A DNA stretch of 64,000 nucleotides from Bradyrhizobium sp. B097 (lineage in GTDB: Bacteria; Pseudomonadota; Alphaproteobacteria; Rhizobiales; Xanthobacteraceae): NCBI RefSeq assembly GCF_038957035.1, contig NZ_CP152412.1, positions 1,422,501 through 1,486,500 of the forward strand, in the 5' to 3' direction. Shown one piece after another: positions 3,978 through 20,691 of this stretch. The notes under the pieces were generated by a model. The model was given only the letters and a program-made list of their open reading frames with translations. It ran no database searches and was not told the DNA's origin. Within the stretch, counting starts at the first letter, position 1, and every line of letters starts with the position of its first letter. Position numbers and translations under genes: made by a program.

Positions 3978-4119
3978 TGGCTGCCCAGGACAGCTTGCGC
4001 GGTACAGTCGCGCTCGACGGTAACGCTAGCTGCTGAGCCCGGTATCATTGAGAACCGTTGCCAAATGTCTCAATCGACGTTCGCCACAGCAATGAAATGC
4101 GGCCCCTCCTTGCGCGCCT

Positions 4120-7565: not shown

Positions 7566-7577
7566 GCAATTAATTGC
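7566..7577. promoter_or_regulatory. Putative Crp/Fnr-type operator, copy 1
   Basis: GCAATTAATTGC, a perfect palindrome centred 83 bp before the first amidase ATG. Two further sites differing by one base each lie before the DUF971 and second ABC units. The shared pattern is GCAA-N4-TTGC. The match to the local Crp/Fnr protein is inference. Confidence 0.6.
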
Positions 7578-7654: not shown

Positions 7655-9088
7655 ATGTCCGCTCAAAATGCTCCCTTGCCAGCTTCGCGGCCGCGCGTGT
7701 CGGATGACATCGCCCTTCTTTCTGCAGCCGATCTGGTCGAGCACTATCGGGCAGGAACGCTCTCGCCGGTGGAAGCGACGCAGGCCGTACTCGATCGCGT
7801 CGAGCGTCTCGATCGCCATGTCAACGCCTTCGCGCTGCTGGATGCCGATGCCACCCGTGTGGCGGCGCGCCAATCCGAAATCCGCTGGCGACGTGGCGAG
7901 CCACTCGGTCCGGTCGATGGCGTGCCGGTCGCCCTCAAGGACCTCATTCTCGCCAAGGGCTGGCCGACGCTGCGGGGCAGCCGGGCGATCGATCCGGCGC
8001 AAGACTGGAACGAGGATTCGCCTGCCACGGCCCGGTTGCGGGAGCAGGGCGCGGTGCTGCTTGGCAAGACGACAACATCGGAATTCGGTTGGAAGGGGCT
8101 CGGCGACAGTCCGTTGACCGGCGTCACGCGCAATCCTTGGAACATCGCCCACACGCCGGGCGGCAGTAGCGGCGGATCCGCGGCCGGCGCGGCGCTGGGT
8201 TTCGGGCCGCTGCATGTTGCCACGGACGGCGGCGGTTCGACCCGGCTTCCGGCCGCACATAGCGGCGTGTTCGGGTTCAAGCCGACCTTTGGTCGCGTTC
8301 CCGTCTATCCGCCGTCGCAGAATGGATCGCTCTTCCACGTCACGCCGATGACACGCTCCGTGCGTGACGCGGCCTTGCTGCTCGACGTGATCGGGCAGCC
8401 GGACCTGCGCGACTGGACCGCGTTGCCGACAACCGAGATCTCCTGGACAGTTGGGCTCGATCAAGGTGTCCGAGGCCTGCGCATCGCATTCAGTCCGAAG
8501 CTCGGCTACGCACAGATCGACCCTCAGATTGAGAAGATCATCACCGAGGCGGCCAACACGCTTGCCGGGCTCGGGGCGATCGTCGAGCAGGTCGATCCCG
8601 GTATCGAAGATCCCATCGATCTCTTCCAGACCTTCTGGTTCGCGGGCGCAGCCAAGCTCCTGGCCTCGTTCGATCCGGCGCGTCGCGCCTTGGTCGAGCA
8701 GGGCCTGCAGGCTGTTGCCGAGAGGGGCCGAGCGATCGATGCCGTCACCTATCTGCAGGCAGTCGATCGCCGGGAGGCGCTCGGTCGACATTTCAATCGG
8801 TTCCATCAGGATTGGGATCTTCTGATCACACCCACCACGGCATATCCCGCTTCGGCGATCGACGCGTCGGAGGCCGATCTTGTGGTGCGGCCGATCCGCT
8901 CCCCCTTCACCTATCCATTCAACCTGACCCAGCAGCCGGCAGCCTCAGTGCCGGCGGGCCTTACCGAGGCGGGATTGCCGGTGGGTCTGCAGATCGTCGG
9001 AGCAAAATTCGCTGATACGACCGTTCTGCGCGCAGCACGCGCCTTCGAGCAGGCAAGGCCGTTCCCGCGCCCACAGGATCCGTCATGA
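7655..9088 (+). CDS. Amidase (amidase-signature family)
   Basis: 477 residues. The Ser-cisSer-Lys triad is visible: Lys in VALKDL near residue 96, the glycine-serine stretch PGGSSGGSAAG near 170, and the nucleophile in TDGGGSTRLPA near 194. The C-terminal ASVPAGLTEAGLPVGLQIVG is typical. The family hydrolyses amides to acid plus ammonia in the cytoplasm; the sequence does not reveal the substrate. It is the first gene of a tightly packed unit: its stop overlaps the next amidase by ATGA. The following genes encode a NitT/TauT-type importer, which suggests the amide or its precursor is imported by it. Confidence 0.93.
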   Translation: MSAQNAPLPASRPRVSDDIALLSAADLVEHYRAGTLSPVEATQAVLDRVERLDRHVNAFALLDADATRVAARQSEIRWRRGEPLGPVDGVPVALKDLILAKGWPTLRGSRAIDPAQDWNEDSPATARLREQGAVLLGKTTTSEFGWKGLGDSPLTGVTRNPWNIAHTPGGSSGGSAAGAALGFGPLHVATDGGGSTRLPAAHSGVFGFKPTFGRVPVYPPSQNGSLFHVTPMTRSVRDAALLLDVIGQPDLRDWTALPTTEISWTVGLDQGVRGLRIAFSPKLGYAQIDPQIEKIITEAANTLAGLGAIVEQVDPGIEDPIDLFQTFWFAGAAKLLASFDPARRALVEQGLQAVAERGRAIDAVTYLQAVDRREALGRHFNRFHQDWDLLITPTTAYPASAIDASEADLVVRPIRSPFTYPFNLTQQPAASVPAGLTEAGLPVGLQIVGAKFADTTVLRAARAFEQARPFPRPQDPS

Positions 9089-10524
9089 CCGAGCAGCCCC
9101 AAAGCCTTGACCTCGAACTGCCGCAACTGGCGATCGCCTACGCCAGCGGAACGTTAACGCCGTCGACCGTGGTCGAGCATATCCTGGACGACATCGCCCG
9201 CCGCGGCGCGGACGGCGTCTGGATCAGTGTCGTGGCGCGCGAGGACGCGCTGGCGCGAACCGCATATCTTGAGTCATTGCCGGGGCGGGAGCCGCAGGCA
9301 TTGCCGCTCTGGGGTGTTCCGTTCAGCGTGAAGGACTGTATCGACACGGTTGGCCTGCCGACCACGTCGGCCTGCCCGGAATTTTCCTATCAGCCGGCGA
9401 AGAATAATCCGGCAGTCGAGCGGCTGCTGGCGGCAGGAGCCATCCTGATTGGAAAGACCAATATGGACCAGTTCGCGACCGGGCTGGTCGGGGTACGCTC
9501 GCCCTATGGCGTTGCGCGCAATCCGTTCGATCCCGCCTACATTCCCGGTGGATCCAGCTCGGGCGCGGCAGTCTCGGTCTCCGCAGGACTGGTCAGCTTT
9601 GCGCTCGCGACTGATACCGGTGGATCGGGACGGGTGCCGGCGGCCTTCAACAATATCGTGGGACTGAAGCCGACGCGAGGATTGATCAGTGGTGTCGGAT
9701 CGGTCGCGGCCTGCCGCTCAATCGAGACACTCTCAATCTTCGCGCTGACGGTTGGGGATGCACAGGCGGCATTTGATGTCGCGCGGGGGTACGACGAGGA
9801 GGATCCGTTCTCGCGGACGGGATCGCCGGCGGCAGTTCGTGCGTTACCGGCTGAATTCCGCTTCGGTGTGCCCGCTTCGCCGTGGTTGGACTTCTTCGGC
9901 AATGCCGACGCGGCCGCGCTGTTCAGCGAGGCGGTCGCGCGACTGGAACGTCTCGGAGGCCGCAAGGTCGAGGTCGATTACGCTCCATTCGCGGAGATCA
10001 ACGATCTTCTGTTCAATGGACCGTGGCTGGCGGATCGCTACGGCGCTCTGCGCCAGTTCGTCGACAGACAGCCCGAAGCCCTGTTTCCCGTCACCCGCGA
10101 CATCCTGCTTGGAGGACGTGGCGTTTCCGGCGGAGAAGTCTTCGTTGCGCAGCAGCGGCTGAATATTCTGAAGCGCCAGATTGAGAAACTCTGGAACGAG
10201 ATCGACGTCATCGTCGTGCCGACCACCGGCACAATCTACCGCATCGATGAGGTCGCGGCCGATCCTGTCACGCTCAACGCCCGGCTCGGGACGTATACGA
10301 ACTTCGTCAATCTGGCCGATCTTTCGGCGGTTGCCGTTCCCTCGGGGTTTCTGCCCAACGGCTTACCACAAGGCATCACGGTGATCGCCCCGGCTTTCGC
10401 CGACCATCATGCCGCTGCTTTGGCGCAACGCTTTCACAACGCCGGCCTGCCGCTCGGTGCGCGCCACGTGCGCCCGGCCGCGAGTCCGGTTCATGCCCGC
10501 CGAGACAAGGAGACCATATCGTGA
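9085..10524 (+). CDS. Allophanate hydrolase-like amidase lacking the C-terminal domain
   Basis: 479 residues. It shows the amidase triad (Lys in FSVKDC; PGGSSSGAAV; TDTGGSGRVPA). The segments GKTNMDQFATGLVGVRSPYG and FNNIVGLKPTRGLISGVG, and the following ACRSIETLSIFALTV, are those I know from the amidase domain of allophanate hydrolase (AtzF/DUR2 type), which splits allophanate or N-carboxycarbamate to ammonia and CO2. Full-length allophanate hydrolases are about 600 residues and have an extra C-terminal domain that is absent here. No urea carboxylase gene is nearby. ATGA overlap with the upstream amidase and GTGA overlap with the downstream binding protein indicate one operon. Confidence 0.85.
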   Translation: MTEQPQSLDLELPQLAIAYASGTLTPSTVVEHILDDIARRGADGVWISVVAREDALARTAYLESLPGREPQALPLWGVPFSVKDCIDTVGLPTTSACPEFSYQPAKNNPAVERLLAAGAILIGKTNMDQFATGLVGVRSPYGVARNPFDPAYIPGGSSSGAAVSVSAGLVSFALATDTGGSGRVPAAFNNIVGLKPTRGLISGVGSVAACRSIETLSIFALTVGDAQAAFDVARGYDEEDPFSRTGSPAAVRALPAEFRFGVPASPWLDFFGNADAAALFSEAVARLERLGGRKVEVDYAPFAEINDLLFNGPWLADRYGALRQFVDRQPEALFPVTRDILLGGRGVSGGEVFVAQQRLNILKRQIEKLWNEIDVIVVPTTGTIYRIDEVAADPVTLNARLGTYTNFVNLADLSAVAVPSGFLPNGLPQGITVIAPAFADHHAAALAQRFHNAGLPLGARHVRPAASPVHARRDKETIS

Positions 10525-11507
10525 CGTCTATTGCCGCCTTATTTGCCGGATCGATCAGGCTCGCACGCGCCGCGGCCGTCGCGCTTGCGGCCGTGCTGTC
10601 GCTGGCGAGCGCGCCTTCACGCGCTCAGGACATCACGATTGGTGAAGGGATTGCGCTCGGCTGGGGCCAGTTCTTCGTCGCCGACCATGACAAGACCTGG
10701 CAGAAGCAGGGGCTGGCGCCGAAGGTTTCGACCTTTGCCAGCGGCCGCCTGGTGCTGGATGCGCTGGTCGGCGGCGGCGTCGTGATCGGCACCGCGGCGG
10801 AAACGCCCGTGGTGTTCGCTACCCTGAACGGGCTGCCGGTACGCATTATCGGCACGTTGAACCGGCATGAACCCTTCGATCTCGTCGCCATCAATGACAT
10901 CAAGACCACCAAGGACATCAAGGGGCGGCGTATCGGCTATTCGCAGGGGACGAACGCGCATTATTACCTGTCGAAGCTGCTCAAGCAGCAAAGTCTGGCG
11001 TGGTCGGACATCACGGCGGTCAGCCTAAATCCGGGCGATTTCGTCAGCAGCTTGGCAGGCGGTGCGATCGATGGGTTCATCTGGACGGAGCCGCATCTGT
11101 CGCAAGCGATCGCGCAAGGCCCCGACAAGTTCCACATCATTCGCTCGGAAGGGCTCTACAACACCTATTCAACAATCATCACGCTGCAATCGACCATCGA
11201 CAGCAAGCCGGACCTGCTCGTCAAGGCGGTGAAGGCGCTGCTCGAGGCCGACGACAATATCAGGAAGGACCCCGATGCCGCGGCCACGCTGACCGCCGAA
11301 CGCATCAAGCTCGATCCCGCGATCGCAAAGGCATTTTGGAAGCGGGCAAATTTCAAGCTCGAGCTTGACAAGGCGTCGCTGGTGTCCCTGATGGAGGAGC
11401 AAGCGAAGTGGGCCGTCGACAGCAAGTTGGTCCGACCTGATGCCAAAATTCCGGACTTCAACACGGTGGTGGTGACGTCCGTGCTGGATCGGGCGAGCCG
11501 GGAATAG
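10521..11507 (+). CDS. ABC transporter substrate-binding protein, NitT/TauT type
   Basis: 328 residues beginning with a signal peptide: basic residues, then AAAVALAAVLSLASA and cleavage near SRA-QD at residue 36. The mature part is an SsuA/TauA-like periplasmic binding protein (GWGQFFVADHDKTWQKQG; later VVIGTAAETPVVFATLNGLP and IGYSQGTNAHYYLSKLL). It would bind the substrate in the periplasm and hand it to the permease and ATPase encoded next. The GTG start overlaps the amidase stop (GTGA) and has AAGGAG 8 nt upstream. Family members bind sulfonates, taurine, nitrate, bicarbonate, pyrimidines or nitriles, so the ligand stays open. Confidence 0.9.
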   Translation: MTSIAALFAGSIRLARAAAVALAAVLSLASAPSRAQDITIGEGIALGWGQFFVADHDKTWQKQGLAPKVSTFASGRLVLDALVGGGVVIGTAAETPVVFATLNGLPVRIIGTLNRHEPFDLVAINDIKTTKDIKGRRIGYSQGTNAHYYLSKLLKQQSLAWSDITAVSLNPGDFVSSLAGGAIDGFIWTEPHLSQAIAQGPDKFHIIRSEGLYNTYSTIITLQSTIDSKPDLLVKAVKALLEADDNIRKDPDAAATLTAERIKLDPAIAKAFWKRANFKLELDKASLVSLMEEQAKWAVDSKLVRPDAKIPDFNTVVVTSVLDRASRE

Positions 11508-11521
11508 GGTGGTCAATCGGA

Positions 11522-12319
11522 ATGAATGCGAGGGTGGAGATCGCATCGCAGACCGCCGTCGGTGAGCCGCTGATCACCTGCATCGAGCTGGGGCATGTCT
11601 ACGATTCCGGCCGCGGCCGTACTACCGCGCTGGGCAGCATCTCGCTCACCGTCGATCGAGGCGAATTCGTTTGCGTTCTCGGGCCGAGCGGGTGCGGCAA
11701 GACCACGCTCCTCAACATCCTGGCCGGCTTTGTCATGCCTGCGGGGGGCGTCGTTCGCGTCGGTGGCCATGCGATCAAGGGGCCGAGTTCCGAACGCGGC
11801 GTCGTGTTTCAGGACTATTCCTTGTTCCCATGGCTGACGGCGCAGGCCAATGTCGAGTTCGGGCTCCGGATGGCGGGGCGCGCTGCGCGCGAGCGAGCGA
11901 AGATTGCGCACGATCTGCTTGGGCTCGTTGGCCTGCCCGATGCTGGTGCGAAGTATCCGTTCGAACTATCAGGCGGAATGAAACAGCGCATCGCCATCGC
12001 ACGCGCGCTTGCAACCCGTCCGTCGCTTCTACTGATGGACGAGCCATTCGCGGCGTTGGATGCGATGACGCGGAGCTCCCTGCAAGCCAAGCTGGTCGAG
12101 ATTCACCGGCAGGAACGGCCGACCATCCTGTTCGTCACCCACAACATCGCCGAAGCGCTCGTGCTTGCGAGCCGGCTGATCGTCATGTCGCCGAACCCGG
12201 GACGGATCGTGGAGGACATCAGAATTGATCTGCCGCGTCCACGCCGTCGTACGGCGCCGCGCTTCAATGAGCTTTACGAGCACGTCGCACGGGCAATCGG
12301 TCTAGAAACGGCGGAGTAA
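11522..12319 (+). CDS. ABC transporter ATP-binding protein, NitT/TauT type
   Basis: 265 residues. Walker A GPSGCGKTT near residue 58, Q-loop FQDYSLFPW, signature LSGGMKQR near 151, Walker B LLLMDEPF near 171 and switch His in FVTHNIAEAL. This is the cytoplasmic ATPase that powers the importer formed with the genes on either side. It starts 14 bp after the binding-protein stop and ends 4 bp before the permease start. Closest in style to SsuB/TauB/NrtD proteins. Confidence 0.94.
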   Translation: MNARVEIASQTAVGEPLITCIELGHVYDSGRGRTTALGSISLTVDRGEFVCVLGPSGCGKTTLLNILAGFVMPAGGVVRVGGHAIKGPSSERGVVFQDYSLFPWLTAQANVEFGLRMAGRAARERAKIAHDLLGLVGLPDAGAKYPFELSGGMKQRIAIARALATRPSLLLMDEPFAALDAMTRSSLQAKLVEIHRQERPTILFVTHNIAEALVLASRLIVMSPNPGRIVEDIRIDLPRPRRRTAPRFNELYEHVARAIGLETAE

Positions 12320-12323
12320 GAAC

Positions 12324-13145
12324 ATGGCTTTCGGCGTGAGCCGCCACAGCGTCGCTGGCATCATCGGTACGCTCGCCTTCCTTGGCGCGTGGGAGGCGCT
12401 CAGCCGAAGCGGCCTCGTCAACAATGTGATGCTGCCCGCGCCGACCACGATCGTCCAATCCGCATGGGAGTTGCTCGTGACGGGCGAATTGCCGCGCCAT
12501 TTCGGTGCCAGCTTGCTGCGGGCCGCGATCGGGTTCCTCGGCGGTTCAGTGCTTGGCGTGGCGCTTGGCGTCGCGATGGCGCAATCGCCGCTGTTACACG
12601 GTACGATTAATCCCCTCGTGCAGATGTTTCGCGCCGTTCCGTCGCTTGCCTTCGTTCCACTGGCGATTTTCTGGTTCGGCATTGGCGAGACTTCCAAGAT
12701 ATTCTTGATCGCCTGGGGCGTCTTTTTCCCGGTCTGGGTCAACACCTATATCGGCGTGCGCGACGTGAGCCCGCTGCTCGGACGGGCGGCAGCGAGTCTC
12801 GGCGCAGGTGGCTGGCGCAACTTCGCCTACGTCGTCATACCCGGCGCGCTGCCCTTCATCATCGCCGGGCTTCGCGTCAGCCTGTCGGTTGCGCTGGTCG
12901 TTCTGGTGGCCGCCGAATTGGCCGGAGCAGCGTTCGGGGTCGGCTATCTGATCCAGATGTCACAACAGGTATTTCGAGTCGATCAGATGTTCGTCGGGCT
13001 GATCGTGCTCGGCGGGATGGGATTTGCGGCCGATCTCCTGTTTGAACGCGCGGTCCACAGGTTGCTGCCCTGGTACGGCGCCGAGCAGGCAGGACAGAAG
13101 GGCTCGCAAATCGAGCGAGCCTCTGGTCGTCCGGTCACAAGATAG
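12324..13145 (+). CDS. ABC transporter permease, NitT/TauT type
   Basis: 273 residues with about six membrane helices. The EAA loop that contacts the ATPase is visible as RAAASLGAGGWRNFAYVVIP near residue 155. The MLPAPTTIVQSAWEL segment after the first helix is typical of SsuC/TauC permeases. It forms the inner-membrane channel of the first importer. It starts 4 bp after the ATPase gene. The gene ends 5 bp before a GCAA-N4-TTGC site, which probably marks a new promoter. Confidence 0.93.
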   Translation: MAFGVSRHSVAGIIGTLAFLGAWEALSRSGLVNNVMLPAPTTIVQSAWELLVTGELPRHFGASLLRAAIGFLGGSVLGVALGVAMAQSPLLHGTINPLVQMFRAVPSLAFVPLAIFWFGIGETSKIFLIAWGVFFPVWVNTYIGVRDVSPLLGRAAASLGAGGWRNFAYVVIPGALPFIIAGLRVSLSVALVVLVAAELAGAAFGVGYLIQMSQQVFRVDQMFVGLIVLGGMGFAADLLFERAVHRLLPWYGAEQAGQKGSQIERASGRPVTR

Positions 13146-13150
13146 CGAAA

Positions 13151-13162
13151 GCAATTTATTGC
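13151..13162. promoter_or_regulatory. Putative Crp/Fnr-type operator, copy 2
   Basis: GCAATTTATTGC, one base different from copy 1, centred 58 bp before the GTG of the DUF971 gene. It lies in the 69-bp gap after the permease and suggests an internal promoter for the flavoprotein unit. Confidence 0.55.
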
Positions 13163-13214
13163 GCGCCAGAGGCGACGGCCCGGCCTACAAGCCGTGGCAA
13201 GAAGGAGAGGCGAC

Positions 13215-13508
13215 GTGCAACCATCCCAAGTCGAGCTATGCGAAAACGCAACAGCATTAGTGCTGACCTGGCCGGATTGCGGGACCCGGCAGGTTGACGC
13301 GGCGGCCTTGCGCCGAGCCAGCCGTGCGGCCAGCGAAATCCGTCGGCAGATTGAGGGCATCGAACTGGCGCTCCCGCCGGATCTTCACATCGCGGCGATC
13401 GAACCAATCGGGAATTACGCGCTGCGGCTCCATTTTTCGGATGGCCATGACCGCGGAATCTACCCGTGGTCCTATTTGCGCGAGCTCGCCGGCCAGCAGC
13501 CAGCCTGA
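13215..13508 (+). CDS. DUF971 domain protein (gamma-butyrobetaine hydroxylase N-terminal-like)
   Basis: 97 residues. LVLTWPDCGTRQVDAAALRR near the start and NYALRLHFSDGHDRGIYPWS near residue 70 are the hallmarks of DUF971. Such proteins also occur as N-terminal domains of gamma-butyrobetaine hydroxylase, and as stand-alone proteins near iron-sulfur cluster carriers such as Mrp/ApbC. The canonical Cys-Pro-Cys region of many members is not seen here. I chose GTG at 13215 because AAGGAGAGG precedes it at good distance. It begins the unit that contains the flavoprotein and ferredoxin, so a role in their Fe-S or flavin maturation is a reasonable guess. Confidence 0.8.
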   Translation: MQPSQVELCENATALVLTWPDCGTRQVDAAALRRASRAASEIRRQIEGIELALPPDLHIAAIEPIGNYALRLHFSDGHDRGIYPWSYLRELAGQQPA

Positions 13509-13517
13509 GGGTACAAT

Positions 13518-15254
13518 ATGGATGAGATCAAAAGTGGCCTGACGGAGGTCGTCTGCGACATCCTGGTGATCGGCGGGGGGACCGCCGGACCGATGGCGGC
13601 CTACAAGGCAAAGCGCCATAGTCCGGGAGCGCGCGTCGTTCTGCTCGAGAAGGCCAACGTCAAGCGCTCTGGCGCGATCGCGATGGGTATGGACGGGCTG
13701 AATAACGCGGTCGTCCCGGGCTACGCGACGCCGGAGCAGTACACCAAGGAGATTACGATCGCCAATGACGGCATCTGCGATCAGGCGCCCGTGTACAAAT
13801 ATGCGTCACGCTGCTTTGAAATCATCCAGGAACTCGACGGCTTTGGCATCAAGTTCCAGAAGAACGAGAACGGTGATTTCGACGTCAAGAAGGTTCACCA
13901 TCTCGGCTCTTACGTACTGCCGATGCCGAACGGCGATACCGTCAAGAAGGCGCTTTATCGCCAATTGCGCCGCGAGAAGGTGCTGATTTCGAACCGCTAC
14001 ATGGCGACACGGCTGTTGACCGGACGCGACGGGCAGATCGCCGGTGCAATCGCCGTCAACACCCGCAGTGCCGAGTTTCTGGTGTTCCGTGCGAAGACCG
14101 TCATCCTGTGTGCCGGTGCCGCGGGCCGGTTGGGCTTGCCGCAATCGGGTTATCTCTGGGGCACTTACGAGAACGCCACCAATTCCGGCGACGGCTATGC
14201 CATGGCCTACCATGCCGGCGCCGCGCTCGCGAACCTTGAATGCTATCAGATCAATCCGTTGATCAAGGATTACAACGGTCCCGCCTGTGCATACGTGGCC
14301 GGTCCATTCGGAGCCTACACCACCAACAGCGAAGGCAACCGCTTCATCGAGTGCGACTACTGGTCGGGACAGATGATGCAGGAGTTCTATAACGAGCTGC
14401 AGTCCGGCAAGGGACCTGTATTCCTGAAACTCAATCATCTGCACAGCGATACGATCGGCAAGATCGAGGCGGTCCTGCATCAGGTCGAGCGACCGTCACG
14501 GGGACGGTTCCACGAGAATCGGGGGACAAATTACCGCGAACGCATGATCGAGATGCATATTTCCGAGATCGGCTTCTGCTCCGGGCACAGCGCTTCGGGC
14601 GTCTATGTCGACGAATTTGCGCGTACCACGGTGCCGGGTCTCTATGCGGCCGGCGACATGGCAAGCGTCCCGCACAATTACATGCTCGGCGCCTTCACCA
14701 ACGGGGCGGTGGCGGGCGAGCACGCTGCGGAAGTTGCAGCCAACATCGACCTCGCCGACTACAACGCCGCCGATGTCGTGCGCGAGCAGCAACGCGTGCT
14801 GGCCGCGACAAGACGAGAGGATGGCATTCCGCCTAACCAGCTTGAATACAAGACGCGACGCTTCGTGAATGACTATCTTCAGCCGCCGAAAGTGACCGCG
14901 AAAATGAAGCTGGGGCAGGCCCGTTTTGCCGAAATCCGCGAGGATATGGAGAGCGCGATGGTGGTGCGTGACGCGCATGAACTGATGCGTTCACTGGAAG
15001 CGGCGTCGATCCTGGATTGTGCCGAAATGGCGGCGTTTGCTTCGCTGTTTCGTACCGAGAGCCGTTGGGGGCTCTATCATCACCGCGTCGAATATCCCGA
15101 GAAGAATGATGACGAGTGGTTCTGCCACAGCATCCTGCGCAAACGGGACGGACAGATGACCGCGGAGAAGCGGCCGGTCGCGCCCTATATTGTGCCAATC
15201 GACGAATCCGAGCGCTCGGCCTACGACCGCCAGCGCATCCGGCAGCACGCCTAG
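13518..15254 (+). CDS. FAD-dependent oxidoreductase, AprA/fumarate reductase flavoprotein type
   Basis: 578 residues. The dinucleotide-binding start DILVIGGGTAGPMAAYKAK (residues about 14-33) is followed by LLEKANVKRSGAIAMGMDGL, a stretch typical of adenylylsulfate reductase alpha (AprA) relatives; the C-terminal FAD contact is VPGLYAAGDMASVPHNYMLG near residue 375. The length is close to AprA (about 620) and to the fumarate reductase/SdhA superfamily. Cytoplasmic, no Tat signal. The next gene encodes a small two-cluster ferredoxin, as AprB is to AprA, so the two probably form an electron-transfer complex. The substrate is unknown; true APS reductase function is not shown, and no sulfate-reduction genes lie nearby. 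Confidence 0.85.
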   Translation: MDEIKSGLTEVVCDILVIGGGTAGPMAAYKAKRHSPGARVVLLEKANVKRSGAIAMGMDGLNNAVVPGYATPEQYTKEITIANDGICDQAPVYKYASRCFEIIQELDGFGIKFQKNENGDFDVKKVHHLGSYVLPMPNGDTVKKALYRQLRREKVLISNRYMATRLLTGRDGQIAGAIAVNTRSAEFLVFRAKTVILCAGAAGRLGLPQSGYLWGTYENATNSGDGYAMAYHAGAALANLECYQINPLIKDYNGPACAYVAGPFGAYTTNSEGNRFIECDYWSGQMMQEFYNELQSGKGPVFLKLNHLHSDTIGKIEAVLHQVERPSRGRFHENRGTNYRERMIEMHISEIGFCSGHSASGVYVDEFARTTVPGLYAAGDMASVPHNYMLGAFTNGAVAGEHAAEVAANIDLADYNAADVVREQQRVLAATRREDGIPPNQLEYKTRRFVNDYLQPPKVTAKMKLGQARFAEIREDMESAMVVRDAHELMRSLEAASILDCAEMAAFASLFRTESRWGLYHHRVEYPEKNDDEWFCHSILRKRDGQMTAEKRPVAPYIVPIDESERSAYDRQRIRQHA

Positions 15255-15271
15255 AGAGAAGCGGACGTCTC

Positions 15272-15505
15272 ATGCCAATTGCTCATACGCCAACCGCTGT
15301 TCCAGTCGTCGTCGACGAGGCCAAATGCATTGCCGACAAGGGGTGCACGGTCTGCGTCGACGTCTGCCCGCTGGACGTGCTCCGGATCAGCGATCTCACC
15401 GGCAAGGCCTACATGAAATACGACGAGTGCTGGTACTGCATGCCCTGCGAGACCGATTGCCCGACCGGCGCCGTGACGGTCAACATTCCCTATCTGTTGC
15501 GCTGA
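15272..15505 (+). CDS. Two-cluster 4Fe-4S ferredoxin, AprB-like
   Basis: 77 residues. Two cysteine sets are visible: C-x5-C-x2-C-x3-CP near residues 19-33 (in KCIADKGCTVCVDVCP) and C-x2-C-x2-C-x3-CP near 52-63 (ECWYCMPCETDCP). Both fit 4Fe-4S clusters. The protein would carry electrons to or from the flavoprotein encoded 17 bp upstream. It is much shorter than full AprB, lacking its C-terminal tail. The start is the ATG at 15272; the open frame upstream is a shadow of the flavoprotein gene. The HEAT-repeat gene begins one base after its stop. Confidence 0.92.
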   Translation: MPIAHTPTAVPVVVDEAKCIADKGCTVCVDVCPLDVLRISDLTGKAYMKYDECWYCMPCETDCPTGAVTVNIPYLLR

Positions 15506-15506
15506 C

Positions 15507-16469
15507 ATGACCGGGTTCGAGCCATTTGAAACGTTCGGGGATCTCGGGGAGATTGCTGAACGGCTATCGAGTGAAGACCCATCGGTGCGCCGACTGGCGG
15601 TGCTGGACCTCGTGGAGACGTCGAGTGGCGAGGCGGTTCCGCTGCTGGCGGGTGCCATCCTCGACGCTGAACCGGTGGTCCGCCAGCAGGCCGCGCAAGC
15701 GCTTGGCGAGTTCGACGGCATCGACGTTGCCAAGGCTCTGATCTGCGCAGTACCCGACCCCGTGGTGGAGGTTGCCCGGGCGGCCGCTGACAGTCTTGCC
15801 GAACTCCGCGATCCCGGGGCGAGTGGCGTCCTCCTGCCGTTAGTGACCCATCCGGCCGCCTTTGTGCGCGCGGCGGTTTTTCGGGCACTGAAGGCACTCC
15901 AGGTCGATGCATCGCTCGGTCCTGCGATCACAGGGCTTGGTGACGACGATCCCGGCGTGCGTGTGCAGGCCGTGGGAGTCATCGGCTATCTCAAGAAGAC
16001 TGAAACGCTGCCATCCTTGATCAGCGCAACGCGGGACAAATCTGCGGATGTCCGGCTTGCGGCCGTCAACGCGCTGTCGTTCGCTCGGAACGAGGTCGCG
16101 GCTCAGGCCGCTGCCGCCGCGCTCTCGGATTCGGAGTGGCAGGTCCGGGCTGCTGCGGCCGAAGCGATTGGGCGGATCGGTCAGGCTTCAGCCGCTGGCG
16201 CGCTGATTGCGTCGCTTGCCGACGGCTACTGGCAAGTTCGTCAGAAGGCATTGCAAAATCTTGGCCGGTTGCGTGTTCGAGACGGGGTCGAAGCTATTGT
16301 TGCCTTCCTTGACGACGAGTTGCCTTCGTTGCGCAAGGATGCTGCCGCGGCGCTCGGTGATATCGCAGATCCACGCTCACGCGACGCCCTCACGCGGCAT
16401 ACTGGCGATGCGGATCCCGACGTTCGAAAGACGGTGATCTGGGCGCTTGGGCAGATTGGCGGCGGCTGA
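15507..16469 (+). CDS. HEAT-repeat protein
   Basis: 320 residues made of about nine to ten helical repeats of roughly 31 residues. The repeat core resembles DPSVRRLAVLDLVE and DDDPGVRVQAVGVIGYL, with SEWQVRAAAAEAIGRIGQ and GYWQVRQKALQNLGRL later. This is the PBS-lyase/HEAT type. Such repeats act as scaffolds or binding surfaces; a few are bilin lyases, but no bilin protein is present. It follows the ferredoxin directly, so I infer a role in assembling or regulating the flavoprotein-ferredoxin complex. No signal peptide. It ends tail to tail with the Crp/Fnr gene with no base between. Confidence 0.85.
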   Translation: MTGFEPFETFGDLGEIAERLSSEDPSVRRLAVLDLVETSSGEAVPLLAGAILDAEPVVRQQAAQALGEFDGIDVAKALICAVPDPVVEVARAAADSLAELRDPGASGVLLPLVTHPAAFVRAAVFRALKALQVDASLGPAITGLGDDDPGVRVQAVGVIGYLKKTETLPSLISATRDKSADVRLAAVNALSFARNEVAAQAAAAALSDSEWQVRAAAAEAIGRIGQASAAGALIASLADGYWQVRQKALQNLGRLRVRDGVEAIVAFLDDELPSLRKDAAAALGDIADPRSRDALTRHTGDADPDVRKTVIWALGQIGGG

Positions 16470-17309
16470 CTATTCCTTGAACAGGATGTCCTCGAGCAGA
16501 TCGAGCCGCCTGATCCTTATGACGCCGTCCTCGATCGCGATGATGCGCTTGGTCTGGAATCGCTTCAGCATCATGGTGATCCACTGACGGGTCGAGCCAA
16601 CCATCGCGGCGATCTGGTCATGTGTCAATTTTCGGTTGATGATGACTGTATCGCCGTCGGCGATTCCATAAAGCTCGGCGAGATTCAAAAGATACTGGGC
16701 GAGCCGCTCGATCACCGAGCGAGTTCCGAGCATCTGCGCCATCGACGAATAGCACTTGCCCTTGGCGATGAGTCCATCGATCAACGCCAGTGCGAAAGCC
16801 GGCACCTGGACCAGCAATCTTTCCAGCGCGGGGCTGGACAAGGCCAGGATCTCGCAGTCCTCCATTGCCACGCCGGACCACATGTGAGGTCCGCCGCCGG
16901 AGATCTCGGGACCGCCGATGAAGTGGCCTGGCGTCCAGTAGGCGAGGGTGATCTCCCGGCCGGATGGCGCAGTGTAGTAGACGCGGACCTGTCCTTTCCC
17001 GATGATGAAAATGCCGCTGTGGTGCTCCCCCTGGCTGAACACCATTTCCCCCTGGGCGGTGAAAACGGTACGTCCGGCGGCCAGGACCTGGGCCTTTTCT
17101 TCGGCGGACAAGCGATCCAGGAACTGCGCGCCGACGTTGAGGCCATCGATGCTCTCGCTCATGAAGAAAGCGGAGTCGCTGGCCATTGCGCGCGGTCCGC
17201 TGGAGACCGCAAGGCTATCCCTTGTTCGATAGCTACCGTCCGCGGAGATGCCTGTCTGCACCATCGGAGTGCGCGCGTAGCCTTCGGAAGCTTCCTTGAT
17301 TGTGGTCAT
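16470..17309 (-). CDS. Crp/Fnr family transcriptional regulator
   Basis: 279 residues. A cyclic-nucleotide-binding-like beta-barrel spans about 65-175 (GEMVFSQGEHHSGIFIIGKG), then a dimer helix and a winged helix-turn-helix near 225-270 (LTHDQIAAMVGSTRQWITMM). The recognition helix keeps the first Arg of CRP-type RETVGR but has Gln and Met where Glu and the second Arg usually lie. Only two Cys are present, so it is not an oxygen-sensing Fe-S FNR. Its effector is unknown. It is encoded between the two transporter operons and is the natural candidate for binding the three GCAA-N4-TTGC sites. The start is uncertain: the first ATG is used, but an internal ATG lies at about residue 42. Confidence 0.88.
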   Translation of the reverse strand: MTTIKEASEGYARTPMVQTGISADGSYRTRDSLAVSSGPRAMASDSAFFMSESIDGLNVGAQFLDRLSAEEKAQVLAAGRTVFTAQGEMVFSQGEHHSGIFIIGKGQVRVYYTAPSGREITLAYWTPGHFIGGPEISGGGPHMWSGVAMEDCEILALSSPALERLLVQVPAFALALIDGLIAKGKCYSSMAQMLGTRSVIERLAQYLLNLAELYGIADGDTVIINRKLTHDQIAAMVGSTRQWITMMLKRFQTKRIIAIEDGVIRIRRLDLLEDILFKE

Positions 17310-17342
17310 TGCGGCCCGGATGTCCTGCGCTGTCGTCCCCTA

Positions 17343-17400
17343 GCTAAGTGTGAGGAGATGGCGAAGTCCACTTCTTTGAATGTCCGTTGGCGCACTTAGC
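17343..17400. promoter_or_regulatory. Inverted repeat near the Crp/Fnr gene start
   Basis: GCTAAGTG (17343-17350) and CACTTAGC (17393-17400) are exact reverse complements, 42 nt apart, beginning 34 bp upstream of the regulator start. They could be an operator pair; chance cannot be excluded. Confidence 0.35.
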
Positions 17401-17531
17401 AAACCTGACGCGAGAACGACATTCCGCTGGAATGGATTTACTGCCGATCTGCCTGGCGTGAGAAAATCATTTGAAGCGTTTGCTGGATGCCGCGATTGGA
17501 ATCCCCCAGCGAATGACGTCTCCGACGCGAT

Positions 17532-17543
17532 GCAAGTAATTGC
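17532..17543. promoter_or_regulatory. Putative Crp/Fnr-type operator, copy 3
   Basis: GCAAGTAATTGC, one base from copy 1, centred 92 bp before the ATG of the second binding protein. Together with copies 1 and 2 it marks every plus-strand unit of the cluster. Confidence 0.55.
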
Positions 17544-17629
17544 TTCTGTTACCGTGGTGTCGGCTCGATAGTCCGGTCTTGCGTTTTGCGGTGGCTGCCG
17601 GCCGCCGATCGATCGTTGGAGATGGGCCG

Positions 17630-19051
17630 ATGCGTTCGCTTTCCTTTTTGAAGACAGCAGCCACCGCCGCGCTTGCCCTAATTGGCCTTGCCGCGATAGC
17701 GCAGGCCGAGACCATCCGGGTCGCGGTCGGGACGCAGGACACCACCATCAACTGCGCGACAGGCGGCCTATTGATTCGTGAGCTCAAGCTGCTGGAGAAA
17801 TTCCTGCCGCATGACGGCAAGTACAAGGATGTCACCTACGACATCCAATGGAAGAACTTCACCAGCGGCGCCCCGCTGACGAACGAAATGGTGGCCGGCA
17901 AGCTGGACTTTGGCGCGATGGCGGATTTTCCGGGTTCGCTCAACGGAGTGGCGTTCCAGAAGGCGGGCCGCCGGAGCCTCTTCATCAGTGTTCTGTCCGG
18001 CAGCACGAAGGGCAGCGGCAACGGCATCGTAGTGCCCTCGAACTCTCCGGTTCAGTCGATCAAGGATCTCAAGGGCAAGACGATTTCCGTACCCTTCGCG
18101 TCGACCTCGCACGGCATGTTGCTGCGCGCGATCGAAGCCGAGGGCTGGAACCCGGAGACGGATGTCAACATCATCACCCAGGCGCCTGAAGTCGCGGGTC
18201 CTGCGCTTCAGGCCAACAAGATCGAGGCGCACGCCGATTTCGTTCCGTTTGCCGAGTTGTTTCCCTGGCGTGGGTTTGCCCGGAAGATCTTTGATGGTTC
18301 GCAAGCCAATGCGCCGACGTTTCACGGGGCGTTGGTCGATGCCGATTACGCGGAAAAGTATCCGGAGATCGTCGTTGCCTACCTGCGCGCCGCGCTCGAG
18401 GCGGATCGCCTGATCGCGAACGAGCCGGAAAAATACAGCGATCTGATTGCCAAGGTGACCGGTATCGAGGCGGAGGTCGTCTATCTGTTCCATGGACCGC
18501 TCGGCCTGCAAACGCGCGACGTGACCTGGAAGCCCGAGTATCGTCAGGCAGTGGCCACCTCGATCAAGACACTGAAGCTGTTGAAGCGCGCCGATAGCGA
18601 CCTCGACATTAATCAGTTCGTGACCGACAAATACATCCGGGCGGCCGTTGCGGAAGCCGGCGGTGACTACGAAGCGCGGCTGAAGAGCTACGACCAGCTT
18701 GGGCTGAAGGTCCTGGATGCGACGACTGGCGCCAAGATCACGGATTTCGGCCGTGTCGCTCAGATTTGGATCAAGGACGAGCCGCTCGTTCAGCACTTCA
18801 GTTCACCGGAAGGCGCTTTGACGGCTCTTGCGGCCCTGGAAAAGCAAGGCAAGGCGATTCGCGTCATCTATGCCCAGGATCGCGAAACCGGAATCAAGCT
18901 GTTCGCAAGTCAGGCGTGGTTTGTGCGGTCGCCAAAGGGAGAGCTCAGTGCGTTCCTGCTCAAGGATGGGGCCGAAAGGTGGTCGACGGCGCATGGTGGC
19001 GTGGTGTTGGACTATGCCGGCGCACGGGAATCGCTTGTAGCGAGCCGTTGA
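17630..19051 (+). CDS. ABC transporter substrate-binding protein with NosL-like C-terminal extension
   Basis: 473 residues, against about 330 for most of the family. A signal peptide (AATAALALIGLAAIAQA, cleavage near residue 24) leads into a NitT/TauT-type binding fold (TIRVAVGTQDTTINCATGGL; later DFGAMADFPGSLNGVAFQ and HADFVPFAELFPWRGFARK). The last 120 or so residues add a separate domain: IRVIYAQDRETGIKLFASQA, then WFVRSPKGELSAFL and WSTAHGGVVLDYAGA. This order resembles NosL, a copper chaperone of nitrous oxide reductase, but its Cys is missing. I infer a fused accessory sensing or docking domain. The ATG at 17630 has GGAG 8 nt upstream. It is the first gene of the second ABC unit. Confidence 0.85.
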   Translation: MRSLSFLKTAATAALALIGLAAIAQAETIRVAVGTQDTTINCATGGLLIRELKLLEKFLPHDGKYKDVTYDIQWKNFTSGAPLTNEMVAGKLDFGAMADFPGSLNGVAFQKAGRRSLFISVLSGSTKGSGNGIVVPSNSPVQSIKDLKGKTISVPFASTSHGMLLRAIEAEGWNPETDVNIITQAPEVAGPALQANKIEAHADFVPFAELFPWRGFARKIFDGSQANAPTFHGALVDADYAEKYPEIVVAYLRAALEADRLIANEPEKYSDLIAKVTGIEAEVVYLFHGPLGLQTRDVTWKPEYRQAVATSIKTLKLLKRADSDLDINQFVTDKYIRAAVAEAGGDYEARLKSYDQLGLKVLDATTGAKITDFGRVAQIWIKDEPLVQHFSSPEGALTALAALEKQGKAIRVIYAQDRETGIKLFASQAWFVRSPKGELSAFLLKDGAERWSTAHGGVVLDYAGARESLVASR

Positions 19052-19054
19052 GCA

Positions 19055-19858
19055 ATGACGACCACTCGCACCGCTGTCCAGGTGCCGTGGGCGCGCTGGC
19101 TCGTTCGGGGTTTCTCGATAGTCGCTTGCATCGTGCTGTGGCAACTCGCCTCAGTTCTGCACCTGAGCCTGGGTTTCGTCACATTCCGCAATGTGCCGCC
19201 GCCGACCGAAGTTCTGCAATCCGCAATCATACTGCTCAAGTCGCCCAAGTTACTGGCTCATGTCGGCAGCAGCCTGTGGAGGGTATTTGCGGGGTACGGC
19301 GCAGCGGTCTTGTTGGGAATTGGCTTTGGCTTTGCGATCGGCCGCTCGCGCGCCGCGAGCGACCTGTTGCTGCCACCGCTCGAGCTGTTGCGGCCGATCC
19401 CGGCGGTGGCCTGGATACCTCTCTCGATCCTGATCTTTCCATCGTCGGAAGTTTCGATGATCTTCATCACTTTCATCGGCGCTTTGTTTCCTATCATTCT
19501 CAACACCGTGCATGGTGTTGCGAATATCGACCGCCGGCTGGTTGCCTCCGCGCGCAGTCTCGGCGGCACGCCTGCCGCCATTCTGCGTGAGATCGTACTG
19601 CCGGGGGCCGCGCCGAGCATCGTTACCGGGCTCGCCATCGGCATGGGCACATCGTGGTTCTGCCTCGTGACCGCGGAGATGATTTCCGGCCAGTTCGGCA
19701 TTGGCTACTACACGTGGGAGGCTTACACGCTGCAGAATTATGCCGATATCATCGTCGGCATGCTCATCATCGGCCTGCTTGGCATGGGCAGTAGCTGGCT
19801 CTTGACGACATTGGGGCATTATCTGATGCCATGGCGGCAGCCAGCGGTCGCACGATGA
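19055..19858 (+). CDS. ABC transporter permease, NitT/TauT type (second system)
   Basis: 267 residues with about six membrane helices. After helix 1 the segment NVPPPTEVLQSAIILLKSPK is typical of SsuC/TauC permeases, and the ATPase-contact EAA loop reads SARSLGGTPAAILREIVLPG near residue 170. It starts 3 bp after the binding-protein gene and overlaps the ATPase gene by ATGA. It would form the inner-membrane channel of the second importer. Confidence 0.93.
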   Translation: MTTTRTAVQVPWARWLVRGFSIVACIVLWQLASVLHLSLGFVTFRNVPPPTEVLQSAIILLKSPKLLAHVGSSLWRVFAGYGAAVLLGIGFGFAIGRSRAASDLLLPPLELLRPIPAVAWIPLSILIFPSSEVSMIFITFIGALFPIILNTVHGVANIDRRLVASARSLGGTPAAILREIVLPGAAPSIVTGLAIGMGTSWFCLVTAEMISGQFGIGYYTWEAYTLQNYADIIVGMLIIGLLGMGSSWLLTTLGHYLMPWRQPAVAR

Positions 19859-20691
19859 ATATTCGGATATCTGATGTTTCGACGAGATCCGTCGGACGTA
19901 TCGGCATCGAGCGCATATCGATCTCGCTTGGGGGTGGCGCTGACGCCTTTGAGGCTGTCCGTGATCTCGATTTCGCAATCGCGCCGGGTGAACTGGTTTG
20001 CGTGCTCGGCCCATCCGGTTGCGGCAAATCCACCTTGCTCGGTGCTTTGGCAGGCCACCTGCCGGTAACACGAGGGCGCTTGACCGTGGATGACCAGGCG
20101 GTTCTTGGCCCGAGTCCGGATCGGGGAATCGTATTTCAGCAACATACGCTGTTTCCGTGGAAGCGTGTTCGCGACAATGTCGGCTTCGGCCCGAAGATGC
20201 GCGGCGTGGGCAGGAGCGAGCGATATCAGGCCGCTGACGAGATTCTGCGGTTGGTCGGCCTTGAGGGCTTCGAGCGCTTCTATCCTTCGCAACTCTCAGG
20301 CGGGATGCAGCAGCGTGTCGAGATCGCGCGTGTTCTGATCAACCGGCCACGTGTGCTGTTGATGGACGAACCGTTCGGCGCACTGGATGCGCAGACTCGC
20401 AGCATGATGCAGGAGGTTCTGCTCGACATCTGGACGAGAATCCCGACAACGACCATCTTCGTGACGCATGATATCGAGGAAGCGCTGTTTCTTGCGGACC
20501 GCGTCATTGTCATGAGCGCCAGACCGGGGCGGGTCATCGAGGACATCCGCCTCCCGTTCGGCCGGCCGCGCCGGGCTGAGCTTGTCACCGAGCCGGATTT
20601 TGTGCGTCTGAAGCGCCGGATTCTCGATCTCCTCAGACAGCCGGATAGCCCGGAGCCGCTTGCGCGTTTGAGTCCGCTCGGGATCAGGTAG
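19855..20691 (+). CDS. ABC transporter ATP-binding protein, NitT/TauT type (second system)
   Basis: 278 residues. Walker A GPSGCGKST near residue 53, Q-loop QQHTLFPW, signature LSGGMQQR near 148, Walker B LLMDEPFGALD near 167 and the switch in FVTHDIEEALFLADR. Start is the ATG at 19855, overlapping the permease stop; the frame extends upstream but there is no reason to use it. It completes the second importer. The two ATPases of the cluster are clearly different sequences, so the transporters are not a recent duplication. Confidence 0.94.
   Translation: MNIRISDVSTRSVGRIGIERISISLGGGADAFEAVRDLDFAIAPGELVCVLGPSGCGKSTLLGALAGHLPVTRGRLTVDDQAVLGPSPDRGIVFQQHTLFPWKRVRDNVGFGPKMRGVGRSERYQAADEILRLVGLEGFERFYPSQLSGGMQQRVEIARVLINRPRVLLMDEPFGALDAQTRSMMQEVLLDIWTRIPTTTIFVTHDIEEALFLADRVIVMSARPGRVIEDIRLPFGRPRRAELVTEPDFVRLKRRILDLLRQPDSPEPLARLSPLGIR

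What the first reader, a model, noticed from the sequence alone, without database searches (positions are those of the whole stretch)
7655..20691. Candidate undescribed uptake and breakdown system: two amidases, two NitT/TauT importers, DUF971, AprA-like flavoprotein, ferredoxin, HEAT protein
The genes are packed with ATGA or GTGA overlaps and short gaps in three units with shared motifs and a dedicated regulator. Two amidases, one resembling allophanate hydrolase, point to an amide-nitrogen substrate. The flavoprotein plus ferredoxin suggests a redox step on the product or a linked sulfur or nitrogen oxide. I cannot name a characterised pathway with this set. No urea carboxylase, nitrile hydratase or sulfonate monooxygenase is present.
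Basis: partly seen in the sequence, partly recalled or inferred. Interest (0 to 1): 0.8.

Follow-up and report, generated by a model that had tools for sequence, protein, structure and literature searches.

The report
Unassigned sulfur-type uptake and reductase system
A soil bacterium carries a jointly controlled set of genes for two importers, two amide-cutting enzymes and an unusual iron-sulfur flavoprotein; the flavoprotein core recurs in many bacteria, has no function that I could find described, and may strip sulfur from imported organic molecules.

Summary
Two amidases, two NitT/TauT-type importers, DUF971, an AprA-like flavoprotein, a ferredoxin and a HEAT protein lie at 7655-20691 in three units. 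Each unit has one palindrome GCAATTAATTGC upstream (3 in 64 kb, 0.06 expected). The genome's only other perfect copy lies 254 bp before a ferredoxin-NADP reductase gene, a family already linked to the flavoprotein by neighbourhoods.

The conserved core is flavoprotein, ferredoxin, HEAT and DUF971; importer 2 follows it in genome content (55 of 57 genomes). Relatives reach cyanobacteria and actinobacteria. The amidases and importer 1 are a lineage-limited add-on; the AtzF-like amidase was beside the core in 6 of 6 genomes having it.

The ferredoxin keeps the AprB Trp; the flavoprotein lacks AprA's substrate Arg and Trp in 30 of 30 sequences, so it is not APS reductase. Sulfur genes cluster with relatives on plasmids; in the unbiased sample only YeiH does.

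Best reading: NADPH-fed, AprAB-like reductive release of sulfite from an imported organosulfur compound. Core and shared operator are well supported; sulfur, direction and substrate are inferred. Nine literature searches listed no description.

The parts
7566..7577 (.). Operator-like palindrome GCAATTAATTGC (perfect) upstream of the amidase/importer-1 unit
   Evidence: one of two perfect copies in the genome; same place in L032, L033, L120, L155, L160, L170
7655..9088 (+). Amidase 1 (AmiA), amidase-signature family, PRK06169
   Evidence: Pfam PF01425 304.8 bits; NCBIfam NF004815 651 bits, cut-off 506
9085..10524 (+). Amidase 2 (AtzF-like), short allophanate-hydrolase relative lacking the C-terminal domain
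   Evidence: TIGR02713 554.5 bits, cut-off 511, profile positions 2-427 of 563 only; closest PDB 4cp8
10521..11507 (+). Importer 1 substrate-binding protein (NMT1/SsuA-like)
   Evidence: PF09084 74.7 bits; TIGR01728 119.9 bits, below cut-off 163.5
11522..12319 (+). Importer 1 ATPase (TauB/NtrCD-like)
   Evidence: PF00005 113.8 bits
12324..13145 (+). Importer 1 permease (TauC/SsuC-like)
   Evidence: PF00528 70.4 bits
13151..13162 (.). Operator-like palindrome GCAATTTATTGC upstream of the DUF971 unit
   Evidence: same place upstream of DUF971 in L031-L034, L036, L120, L153, L155, L160, L170
13194..13508 (+). DUF971 / GBBH-like_N protein; probable Fe-S insertion factor (inferred)
   Evidence: PF06155 66 bits; an Mrp/NBP35 Fe-S carrier sits next to HEAT in the four cyanobacterial records read (one of them tested by Pfam)
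13518..15254 (+). AprA-like FAD flavoprotein (PRK08275 family), proposed catalytic subunit
   Evidence: NF006131 1061.6 bits, cut-off 587; closest PDB 8a8o PAPS reductase alpha, E 3.2e-54; residue test
15272..15505 (+). AprB-like 2x[4Fe-4S] ferredoxin with CWYC Trp
   Evidence: Fer4 hits for a slightly longer frame; AprB 3gyx_B E 1e-7, after polyferredoxin chains; Trp54 in 187 of 188 loci
15507..16469 (+). HEAT-repeat protein; relatives fused to the flavoprotein
   Evidence: PF13646 163.9 bits; NF010374 fusion model; 893-aa fusion in Tsukamurella L140
16470..17309 (-). Crp/Fnr-family regulator, probable reader of the palindrome (inferred)
   Evidence: PF00027, PF13545; no NCBIfam model above cut-off; near the core in 40 of 52 and 3 of 13 loci
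17532..17543 (.). Operator-like palindrome GCAAGTAATTGC upstream of the importer-2 unit
   Evidence: same place upstream of the importer-2 binding protein in L030-L034, L120, L160, L170, L271
17630..19051 (+). Importer 2 substrate-binding protein, long (473 aa) NitT/TauT type
   Evidence: TIGR01728 118.7 bits, below cut-off 163.5 (frame from 17540); genome-content match with the flavoprotein, 55 of 57
19055..19858 (+). Importer 2 permease
   Evidence: PF00528 77.1 bits
19831..20691 (+). Importer 2 ATPase (probable start 19855)
   Evidence: PF00005 110.5 bits; start from sequence

Best explanation
This is a co-regulated nutrient-scavenging regulon built round a two-subunit, AprAB-like redox enzyme. 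Importer 2, with its long binding protein, brings in an oxidised organosulfur compound. In this lineage importer 1 and two amidases add amide-bearing precursors, which are trimmed by hydrolysis. NADPH electrons pass through a ferredoxin-NADP reductase (and, in relatives, FdxA) to the small ferredoxin and on to the FAD protein. The FAD protein then reductively releases sulfite, probably through a flavin-sulfite adduct as proposed for APS reductase. HEAT is a dedicated scaffold or assembly partner and DUF971 an iron-sulfur insertion factor. The Crp-family protein controls the three units, and probably the reductase gene, through GCAATTAATTGC. Sulfite is used, or exported by YeiH/TauE-type carriers where these are present. 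Shown by sequence: gene set, the shared palindrome, its second perfect copy in front of fpr, the conserved core, the genome-content link to importer 2, the AprB-type Trp and cysteines. Inferred: electron direction, sulfur as the target element, sulfite as the product, roles of HEAT and DUF971, and which protein binds the palindrome. Unknown: the exact substrate.
For: Operator: 3 sites in the window against 0.06 expected. Only 2 perfect sites in 9.25 Mb, the second 254 bp upstream of an fpr homologue. In G289, G459, G555 and G660 the single perfect site of the genome is upstream of the amidase unit; in G634 it is about 140 bp upstream of an fdxA homologue. In the family sample 34 of 52 loci have a looser site within 400 bp upstream of a system gene (48 of the 52 sites found), against 3 sites in 35 control regions. 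Core: flavoprotein, ferredoxin and HEAT in 52/52 and 13/13 loci, 0/35 controls; importer-2 binding protein 40/52 and 11/13, 0/35; Fpr 31/52 and 3/13, 0/35; YeiH 10/52 and 0/13, 0/35. Flavoprotein and importer-2 binding protein co-occur in 55 of 296 genomes (57 and 59 alone; Fisher p 2e-52, not corrected for relatedness). In seven genomes where they lie apart, the binding-protein locus reads CRP-SBP2-permease-ATPase-FdxA-Fpr-YeiH (7 of 7), with a LysR gene beside YeiH that is YeiE-like in the one tested. Sulfur: by strict annotation names, sulfite or sulfate exporters, ssuD, sulfate or sulfonate binding proteins, or metX/OAH sulfhydrylase lie near the core in 7 of 14 annotated plasmid loci (8 with a TSUP transporter), 0 of 8 control stretches (p 0.02; the list of names was drawn up after seeing the loci). 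AprB-type Trp and 8 Cys. AtzF-like in 6 of 296 genomes, 6 of 6 about 4.4 kb from the flavoprotein.
Against: In the unbiased sample the sulfur link rests on YeiH alone: TauE/TSUP queries 0/52 and 0/13, DmoA-like monooxygenase 0/52 and 0/13 (1/35 controls), TauD-like 0/52 and 2/13 (1/35), SsuE-like 2/52 and 0/13 (1/35). AprA's substrate-side Arg and Trp are replaced in 30 of 30 sequences, so the catalytic analogy is incomplete. The window has no sulfite exporter or other sulfur gene beside it; YeiH and fpr are elsewhere in the genome. The perfect site before fpr lies in a divergent promoter region and is nearer (about 33 bases) to a 311-aa gene on the other strand, so fpr may not be its target. 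Ten fpr copies away from the flavoprotein in seven relatives have no GCAA-N4-TTGC within about 600 bp; one copy beside it has. Three of eight relatives have no perfect site. Genome-wide the 9 sites with at most 1 mismatch are about what chance gives (0.06 x 145 = 8.7). YeiH/TauE names are annotations, and 'sulfonate' names for NitT/TauT binding proteins are generic. In eight loci of one genus the redox genes have no importer beside them, and the three read gene by gene lie among unrelated genes. The regulator's best NCBIfam hit is the nitrogen regulator NtcA, far below cut-off (59.7 of 245 bits). The AlphaFold model was too poor to use.
Confidence: 0.46

Rival explanations
1. Nitrogen scavenging: the importers bring in an amide, ureide or N-heterocycle; amidases release ammonia and the flavoprotein carries out a ring or N-oxide reduction.
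For: Two amidases in one operon. Short AtzF-like enzyme beside the core in 6 of 6 genomes having it. Amidases or M20 peptidases near relatives in M. radiotolerans, Methylocystis, Nostoc and L098. The regulator's best NCBIfam hit is NtcA, below cut-off. Sulfonate oxygenases are not enriched in the unbiased sample.
Against: Amidases are near the core in only 5/52 and 8/52 loci, whereas importer 2 is in 55 of 57 flavoprotein genomes. Sulfur genes recur beside the core in several lineages.
Confidence: 0.25
2. Sulfite handling in the other direction: the AprAB-like enzyme oxidises sulfite produced from sulfonates and passes electrons to ferredoxin/NADP.
For: Same fold family and partner as APS reductase; exporters named for sulfite nearby on plasmids and, in Rhodobacteraceae-type loci, cytochrome c and copper chaperones.
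Against: AprA Arg (R or K in 15 of 15 AprA) and Trp (15 of 15) are absent in 30 of 30, so AMP/sulfite binding as in AprA is unlikely. An importer that tracks the enzyme in genome content suggests that the substrate is imported.
Confidence: 0.1
3. Reductase or dehydrogenase of a sulfur-free organic acid (fumarate reductase/SDH-like), with the sulfur genes being bystanders.
For: Family is named fumarate reductase/SDH flavoprotein; it keeps an SDH-like Asp225 (27 of 30) and Gln244 (30 of 30).
Against: Closest structures are PAPS/APS reductases, not SDH (E 3e-54 and 2e-37 against 6e-24), and the AprB-type CWxC Trp is kept.
Confidence: 0.14
4. Two unrelated operons (amide uptake, redox enzyme) that happen to be neighbours in this lineage.
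For: Most relatives lack the amidase unit.
Against: Same palindrome before all three units and at the same places in relatives; AtzF-like gene not found away from the flavoprotein in the 6 of 296 genomes that have it.
Confidence: 0.05

Closest known systems
Dissimilatory APS reductase AprAB
   Same: FAD subunit of the same family with a small 2x[4Fe-4S] ferredoxin, eight cluster Cys, CWxC Trp, conserved Asn62 and His357 equivalents
   Different: Substrate-side Arg and Trp replaced in 30 of 30; own invariant Cys242, Cys257, Cys354; linked to importer, HEAT and DUF971
Assimilatory FAD-type PAPS reductase of Methanothermococcus thermolithotrophicus (PDB 8a8o; PMC10322725, passages read)
   Same: Closest solved structure by sequence; assimilatory use of an AprAB-type enzyme
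   Different: In the pairwise alignment 8a8o has Arg where the window protein has Tyr243; bacterial gene set with importer
SsuABC/SsuDE and TauABCD sulfonate systems
   Same: NitT/TauT-type importer; in S. americanum ssuD, flavin reductase and a TauD-family gene lie in the same 26-kb stretch
   Different: Known systems use an O2-dependent oxygenase (recalled); none is among the proteins at 7655-20691
Acesulfame cluster 1 of Bosea (PMC10413263, passages read)
   Same: ABC importer plus amidase-signature enzyme plus TauE-like protein on one cluster; the pathway passes through an amide N-sulfonate
   Different: Has a metallo-beta-lactamase-type sulfatase; no AprA-like enzyme in the passages read; the amidase shown to cleave the N-sulfonate is the one of cluster 2
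AtzF / allophanate hydrolase
   Same: Amidase domain as in 4cp8, GGSSSG and the Arg318 position kept
   Different: No C-terminal domain; Phe310 where AtzF has a substrate Tyr (residue roles recalled)

Membership tests
APS reductase AprA (TIGR02061) | Score above curated cut-off | tested here: not met
   147.8 bits against cut-off 641.75
APS reductase AprA (TIGR02061) | Substrate-side Arg265 and Trp234 (A. fulgidus numbering, roles recalled) | tested here: not met
   FLAV family F20/Y10 and Y30; AprA R12/K3 and W15
APS reductase AprA (TIGR02061) | Asn74 and His398 equivalents (roles recalled) | tested here: met
   N62 and H357 in 30 of 30; 15 of 15 in AprA
AprB-type ferredoxin | Eight cluster Cys and the CWxC Trp electron relay | tested here: met
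   Cys in 187-188 and Trp54 in 187 of 188 loci (some genomes are in twice); MtPAPSR Trp42 (PMC10322725 passages)
PRK08275 (NF006131) | Score above curated cut-off | tested here: met
   1061.6 bits against 587
Allophanate hydrolase (TIGR02713) | Score above cut-off through the amidase domain | tested here: met
   554.5 bits against 511
Allophanate hydrolase (TIGR02713) | C-terminal domain (profile 428-563) | tested here: not met
   Match ends at profile position 427; Pfam reports the Amidase domain only, while longer relatives carry PF21986
SsuD/TauD oxygenolytic desulfonation | Monooxygenase or 2-oxoglutarate dioxygenase in the operons | tested here: not met
   None among proteins at 7655-20691
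Functional desulfonating enzyme | Sulfite released from an organosulfur substrate | not testable with these tools
   Needs enzyme assay

The most novel reading that the evidence does not exclude
A widespread, oxygen-independent desulfonation route in aerobic bacteria and cyanobacteria: an AprAB-type flavoprotein fed by NADPH-ferredoxin cleaves S-O, N-S or C-S bonds of imported sulfonated compounds. In the Bradyrhizobium lineage, amidases first open amide N-sulfonates or N-acyl sulfonates, all under one Crp-family regulon.
Probability: 0.28. Interest if true: 0.85.

Novelty: new variant of a known kind. Interest (0 to 1): 0.62.

Why it matters
APS reductase-type enzymes are known from sulfate respiration and sulfur oxidation (recalled) and from assimilation in a methanogen (PMC10322725). 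Here a separate clade, found in 57 of 296 genomes of the window's family and 21 of 398 of its phylum sample, travels with a dedicated importer and electron supply. If it frees sulfite from organic sulfur without oxygen, it would be a new way by which soil, plant-associated and photosynthetic bacteria obtain sulfur. It would also give a function to a large family now named only 'fumarate reductase/succinate dehydrogenase flavoprotein subunit'. The predicted operator makes the regulon directly testable.

Tried and rejected
Rejected: APS reductase membership. Two earlier runs of that test used AprA sequences in wrong frames and are superseded. First gene calls in high-GC loci contained antisense ORFs; the tallies rest on tblastn. 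In one search one helper query (LLM_SSUD) was out of frame with a stop and its row is dropped (it had shown 1/52, 0/13, 0/35). The AlphaFold job gave pLDDT 51.6 from 24 close sequences and was not searched further. DUF971 reaches 23/52 and 8/13, at E 1e-10 for a 104-aa query; at E 1e-6 it is in 95 of the 100 loci L030-L129. Acesulfame lead: analogous, but the passages read mention no AprA-like enzyme. Genome-wide operator sites with one mismatch are near chance number; the one at 1358528 (L290) is only noted. Literature searches without a description: (open-licence PMC papers; papers listed there were not opened); one search was the acesulfame search.


Full report
WHAT IS THERE. The window lies in a 9.25-Mb single-contig genome whose closest named protein relatives are from Bradyrhizobium. 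The plus strand from 7655 to 20691 carries amidase 1, an AtzF-like amidase 2, importer 1 (binding protein, ATPase, permease), DUF971, an AprA-like flavoprotein, a ferredoxin, a HEAT-repeat protein and importer 2 (binding protein, permease, ATPase). A Crp/Fnr-family gene runs the other way between HEAT and importer 2. No RNA family reached its gathering score in the window.

A SHARED OPERATOR. The palindrome GCAATTAATTGC, with at most one mismatch, occurs three times in 64 kb: 77 bases before amidase 1, 31 before DUF971 and 86 before the importer-2 binding protein. Expectation from shuffles is 0.06, and none of 100 shuffles reached three. In the whole genome there are nine sites with at most one mismatch, about chance number (0.06 x 145 = 8.7), but only two perfect ones: the amidase site and 8686243. 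The latter lies 254 bp upstream of a 257-aa ferredoxin-NADP reductase gene. Comparative neighbourhoods had tied that family to the flavoprotein before the operator was known (31 of 52 and 3 of 13 loci against 0 of 35 controls). Caveat: the same site is only about 33 bases before a divergent 311-aa gene, so which gene it serves is open. Eight relatives were searched for perfect sites: five have one each, three none. In G289, G459, G555 and G660 it is the site before the amidase unit (for L120, L160, L170, L155). In G634 it is about 140 bp before an FdxA-type ferredoxin gene, 73% identical to an annotated FdxA. In the family sample 34 of 52 loci have a looser site (GCAA-N3-ATTGC or its complement) within 400 bp upstream of a system gene; 48 of the 52 sites found are so placed, most often before Fpr (22 loci) and DUF971 (16 loci). 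In the 13 loci of other families 3 have one, and 35 control regions hold 3 sites in all. Ten fpr copies that lie away from the flavoprotein in seven relatives have no GCAA-N4-TTGC within about 600 bp; one copy beside the flavoprotein has it.

THE CONSERVED CORE. Of 57 family genomes with the flavoprotein among 296 searched, 52 loci were examined; the window itself and four contig-edge or fragmentary cases (G624, G490, G630, G401) were not. Thirteen loci came from the rest of the phylum sample (21 of 398 genomes positive; the other eight are the window and family members). Flavoprotein, ferredoxin and HEAT: 52/52 and 13/13; importer-2 binding protein 40/52 and 11/13; Crp 40/52 and 3/13; Fpr 31/52 and 3/13; FdxA 7/52 and 4/13; YeiH 10/52 and 0/13; AtzF-like 8/52 and 0/13; amidase 1 5/52 and 0/13. 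The 35 control regions from the same genomes scored zero for these (the importer ATPases 2/35 and 1/35). At E 1e-6 DUF971 is in 95 of 100 loci and the four-gene core in 93. In eight loci of one genus no importer is beside the core; three of them read gene by gene lie among unrelated genes. Even so the importer-2 binding protein is elsewhere in seven of these eight genomes: over the 296 genomes the flavoprotein is in 57, the binding protein in 59, both in 55. At those seven separate places the order is CRP-SBP2-permease-ATPase-FdxA-Fpr-YeiH; YeiH is matched there at 30-33% identity. A LysR gene beside YeiH was tested in one locus and is YeiE-like (NF040889 204 bits, below its cut-off of 480).

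BREADTH AND FUSION. Annotated plasmid records show the flavoprotein with ferredoxin and HEAT in cyanobacteria (Leptolyngbya, Pseudanabaena, Nostoc), an actinobacterium (Tsukamurella), Acinetobacter, Paraburkholderia, Cupriavidus, Aquabacterium, Acidithiobacillus, Methylobacterium, Methylocystis and rhizobia. In Tsukamurella flavoprotein and HEAT form one 893-aa chain, as in the NCBIfam model NF010374 to which both window proteins align in turn. In the four cyanobacterial records an Mrp/NBP35-type Fe-S carrier stands next to HEAT (one tested by Pfam), which supports a maturation role for DUF971 by position only.

WHAT THE ENZYME IS. The flavoprotein's nearest solved relatives are the PAPS reductase alpha subunit of Methanothermococcus (E 3.2e-54) and AprA (1.5e-37), then SDH (5.6e-24). 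In an alignment of 30 family members, 15 AprA and 6 outgroup sequences, 64 columns are near-invariant and the same in family and AprA, and 58 are near-invariant but different. The Asn74 and His398 equivalents are kept, while Trp234 is Tyr in 30/30 and Arg265 is Phe or Tyr in 30/30 (residue roles recalled). It is therefore a separate clade, not APS reductase. The ferredoxin matches AprB (E 1e-7), though polyferredoxin chains score higher, and keeps the cluster cysteines and the CWxC Trp in 187 of 188 loci. In the methanogen enzyme the corresponding Trp42 is proposed to take part in electron transfer (PMC10322725, passages read).

FOR AND AGAINST SULFUR. By strict annotation names, sulfite or sulfate exporters, sulfonate or sulfate transporters, ssuD or sulfur amino-acid genes lie near the core in 7 of 14 annotated plasmid loci (8 with a TSUP transporter in Acinetobacter), and in none of 8 control stretches from eight of the same plasmids (p 0.02; names chosen after seeing the loci; the unannotated L142 is left out). 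YeiH is near in 10 of 52 sampled loci. Against: in that sample TauE/TSUP queries hit 0/52 and 0/13, DmoA-like monooxygenase 0/52 (controls 1/35), TauD-like 0/52 and 2/13 (controls 1/35) and SsuE-like 2/52 (controls 1/35), so outside YeiH the sulfur link is not seen there. One further operator-like site of the own genome (one mismatch, so weak) lies between a taurine-type binding protein and MetQ/SsuA genes. The electron suppliers Fpr and FdxA point to reduction rather than oxidation; the gene tables of the four cyanobacterial records list neither, which fits a photosynthetic ferredoxin supply (inference; PLSDB tables are incomplete).

THE AMIDASES. The short AtzF-like enzyme (E at most 1e-160) is in 6 of 296 family genomes and in all six about 4.4 kb before the flavoprotein. 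It matches the amidase domain of AtzF with the serine-rich and Arg regions kept, but Phe in place of a substrate Tyr (residue roles recalled) and no C-terminal domain. Operator and position tie it to the same regulon. A partial analogue is acesulfame cluster 1 of Bosea: ABC importer, amidase-signature enzyme and TauE-like protein, in a pathway through an amide N-sulfonate (PMC10413263, passages read); there the amidase shown to act on the N-sulfonate is encoded in cluster 2.

VERDICT. A real, co-regulated and widespread system whose core function I did not find described in the searches made. A reductive, sulfite-releasing AprAB-like enzyme with its own importer is the best-supported reading (0.46). 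A nitrogen-directed reading is the main rival (0.25).

Noticed in passing
window 6438-7250 (+): CmcJ/NvfI-family oxidoreductase (NF041278, 317 bits, cut-off 80) just upstream of the amidase operon; no Pfam hit.
   Followed up: no
window 20766-22187 (-): FAD/NAD-binding protein (PF13454) with no NCBIfam model above cut-off; 88% identical neighbour in B. uaiense L030, not found near the core in the 52, 13 and 35 regions.
   Followed up: partly
window 24869-26158 (-): Tyrosine recombinase close to the system; possible island boundary.
   Followed up: no
L053:17269-17982, L044, L045, L107: In several Alphaproteobacterial loci the cluster also has SCO1, a PCuAC copper chaperone, a c-type cytochrome and a 237-aa membrane protein with a CC motif and no Pfam hit.
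   Followed up: partly
L134 (Acidithiobacillus caldus pTcM1) 10574-14035: FLAV-FDX-HEAT-fdxA followed by an 1153-aa FAD-dependent oxidoreductase with only a partial Pfam match.
   Followed up: no
hits H89, H90, H91, H92, H93, H94: Partial or broken flavoprotein matches on Mesorhizobium, Caballeronia, Rhizobium and A. caldus plasmids.
   Followed up: no
L290 (own genome 1354500-1362800), site at 4029: One-mismatch operator site between a taurine-type importer and MetQ/SsuA genes; near chance level genome-wide but suggestive.
   Followed up: partly
L288:3788-4723 (own genome): 311-aa gene divergent from fpr, about 33 bases from the perfect operator copy; not identified by any search.
   Followed up: no
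L139 (Nostoc pNe_5): Run of genes mixing the core with HAD, methyltransferase, GNAT, amidase and a FosA-like VOC gene, next to metX and OAH sulfhydrylase.
   Followed up: no
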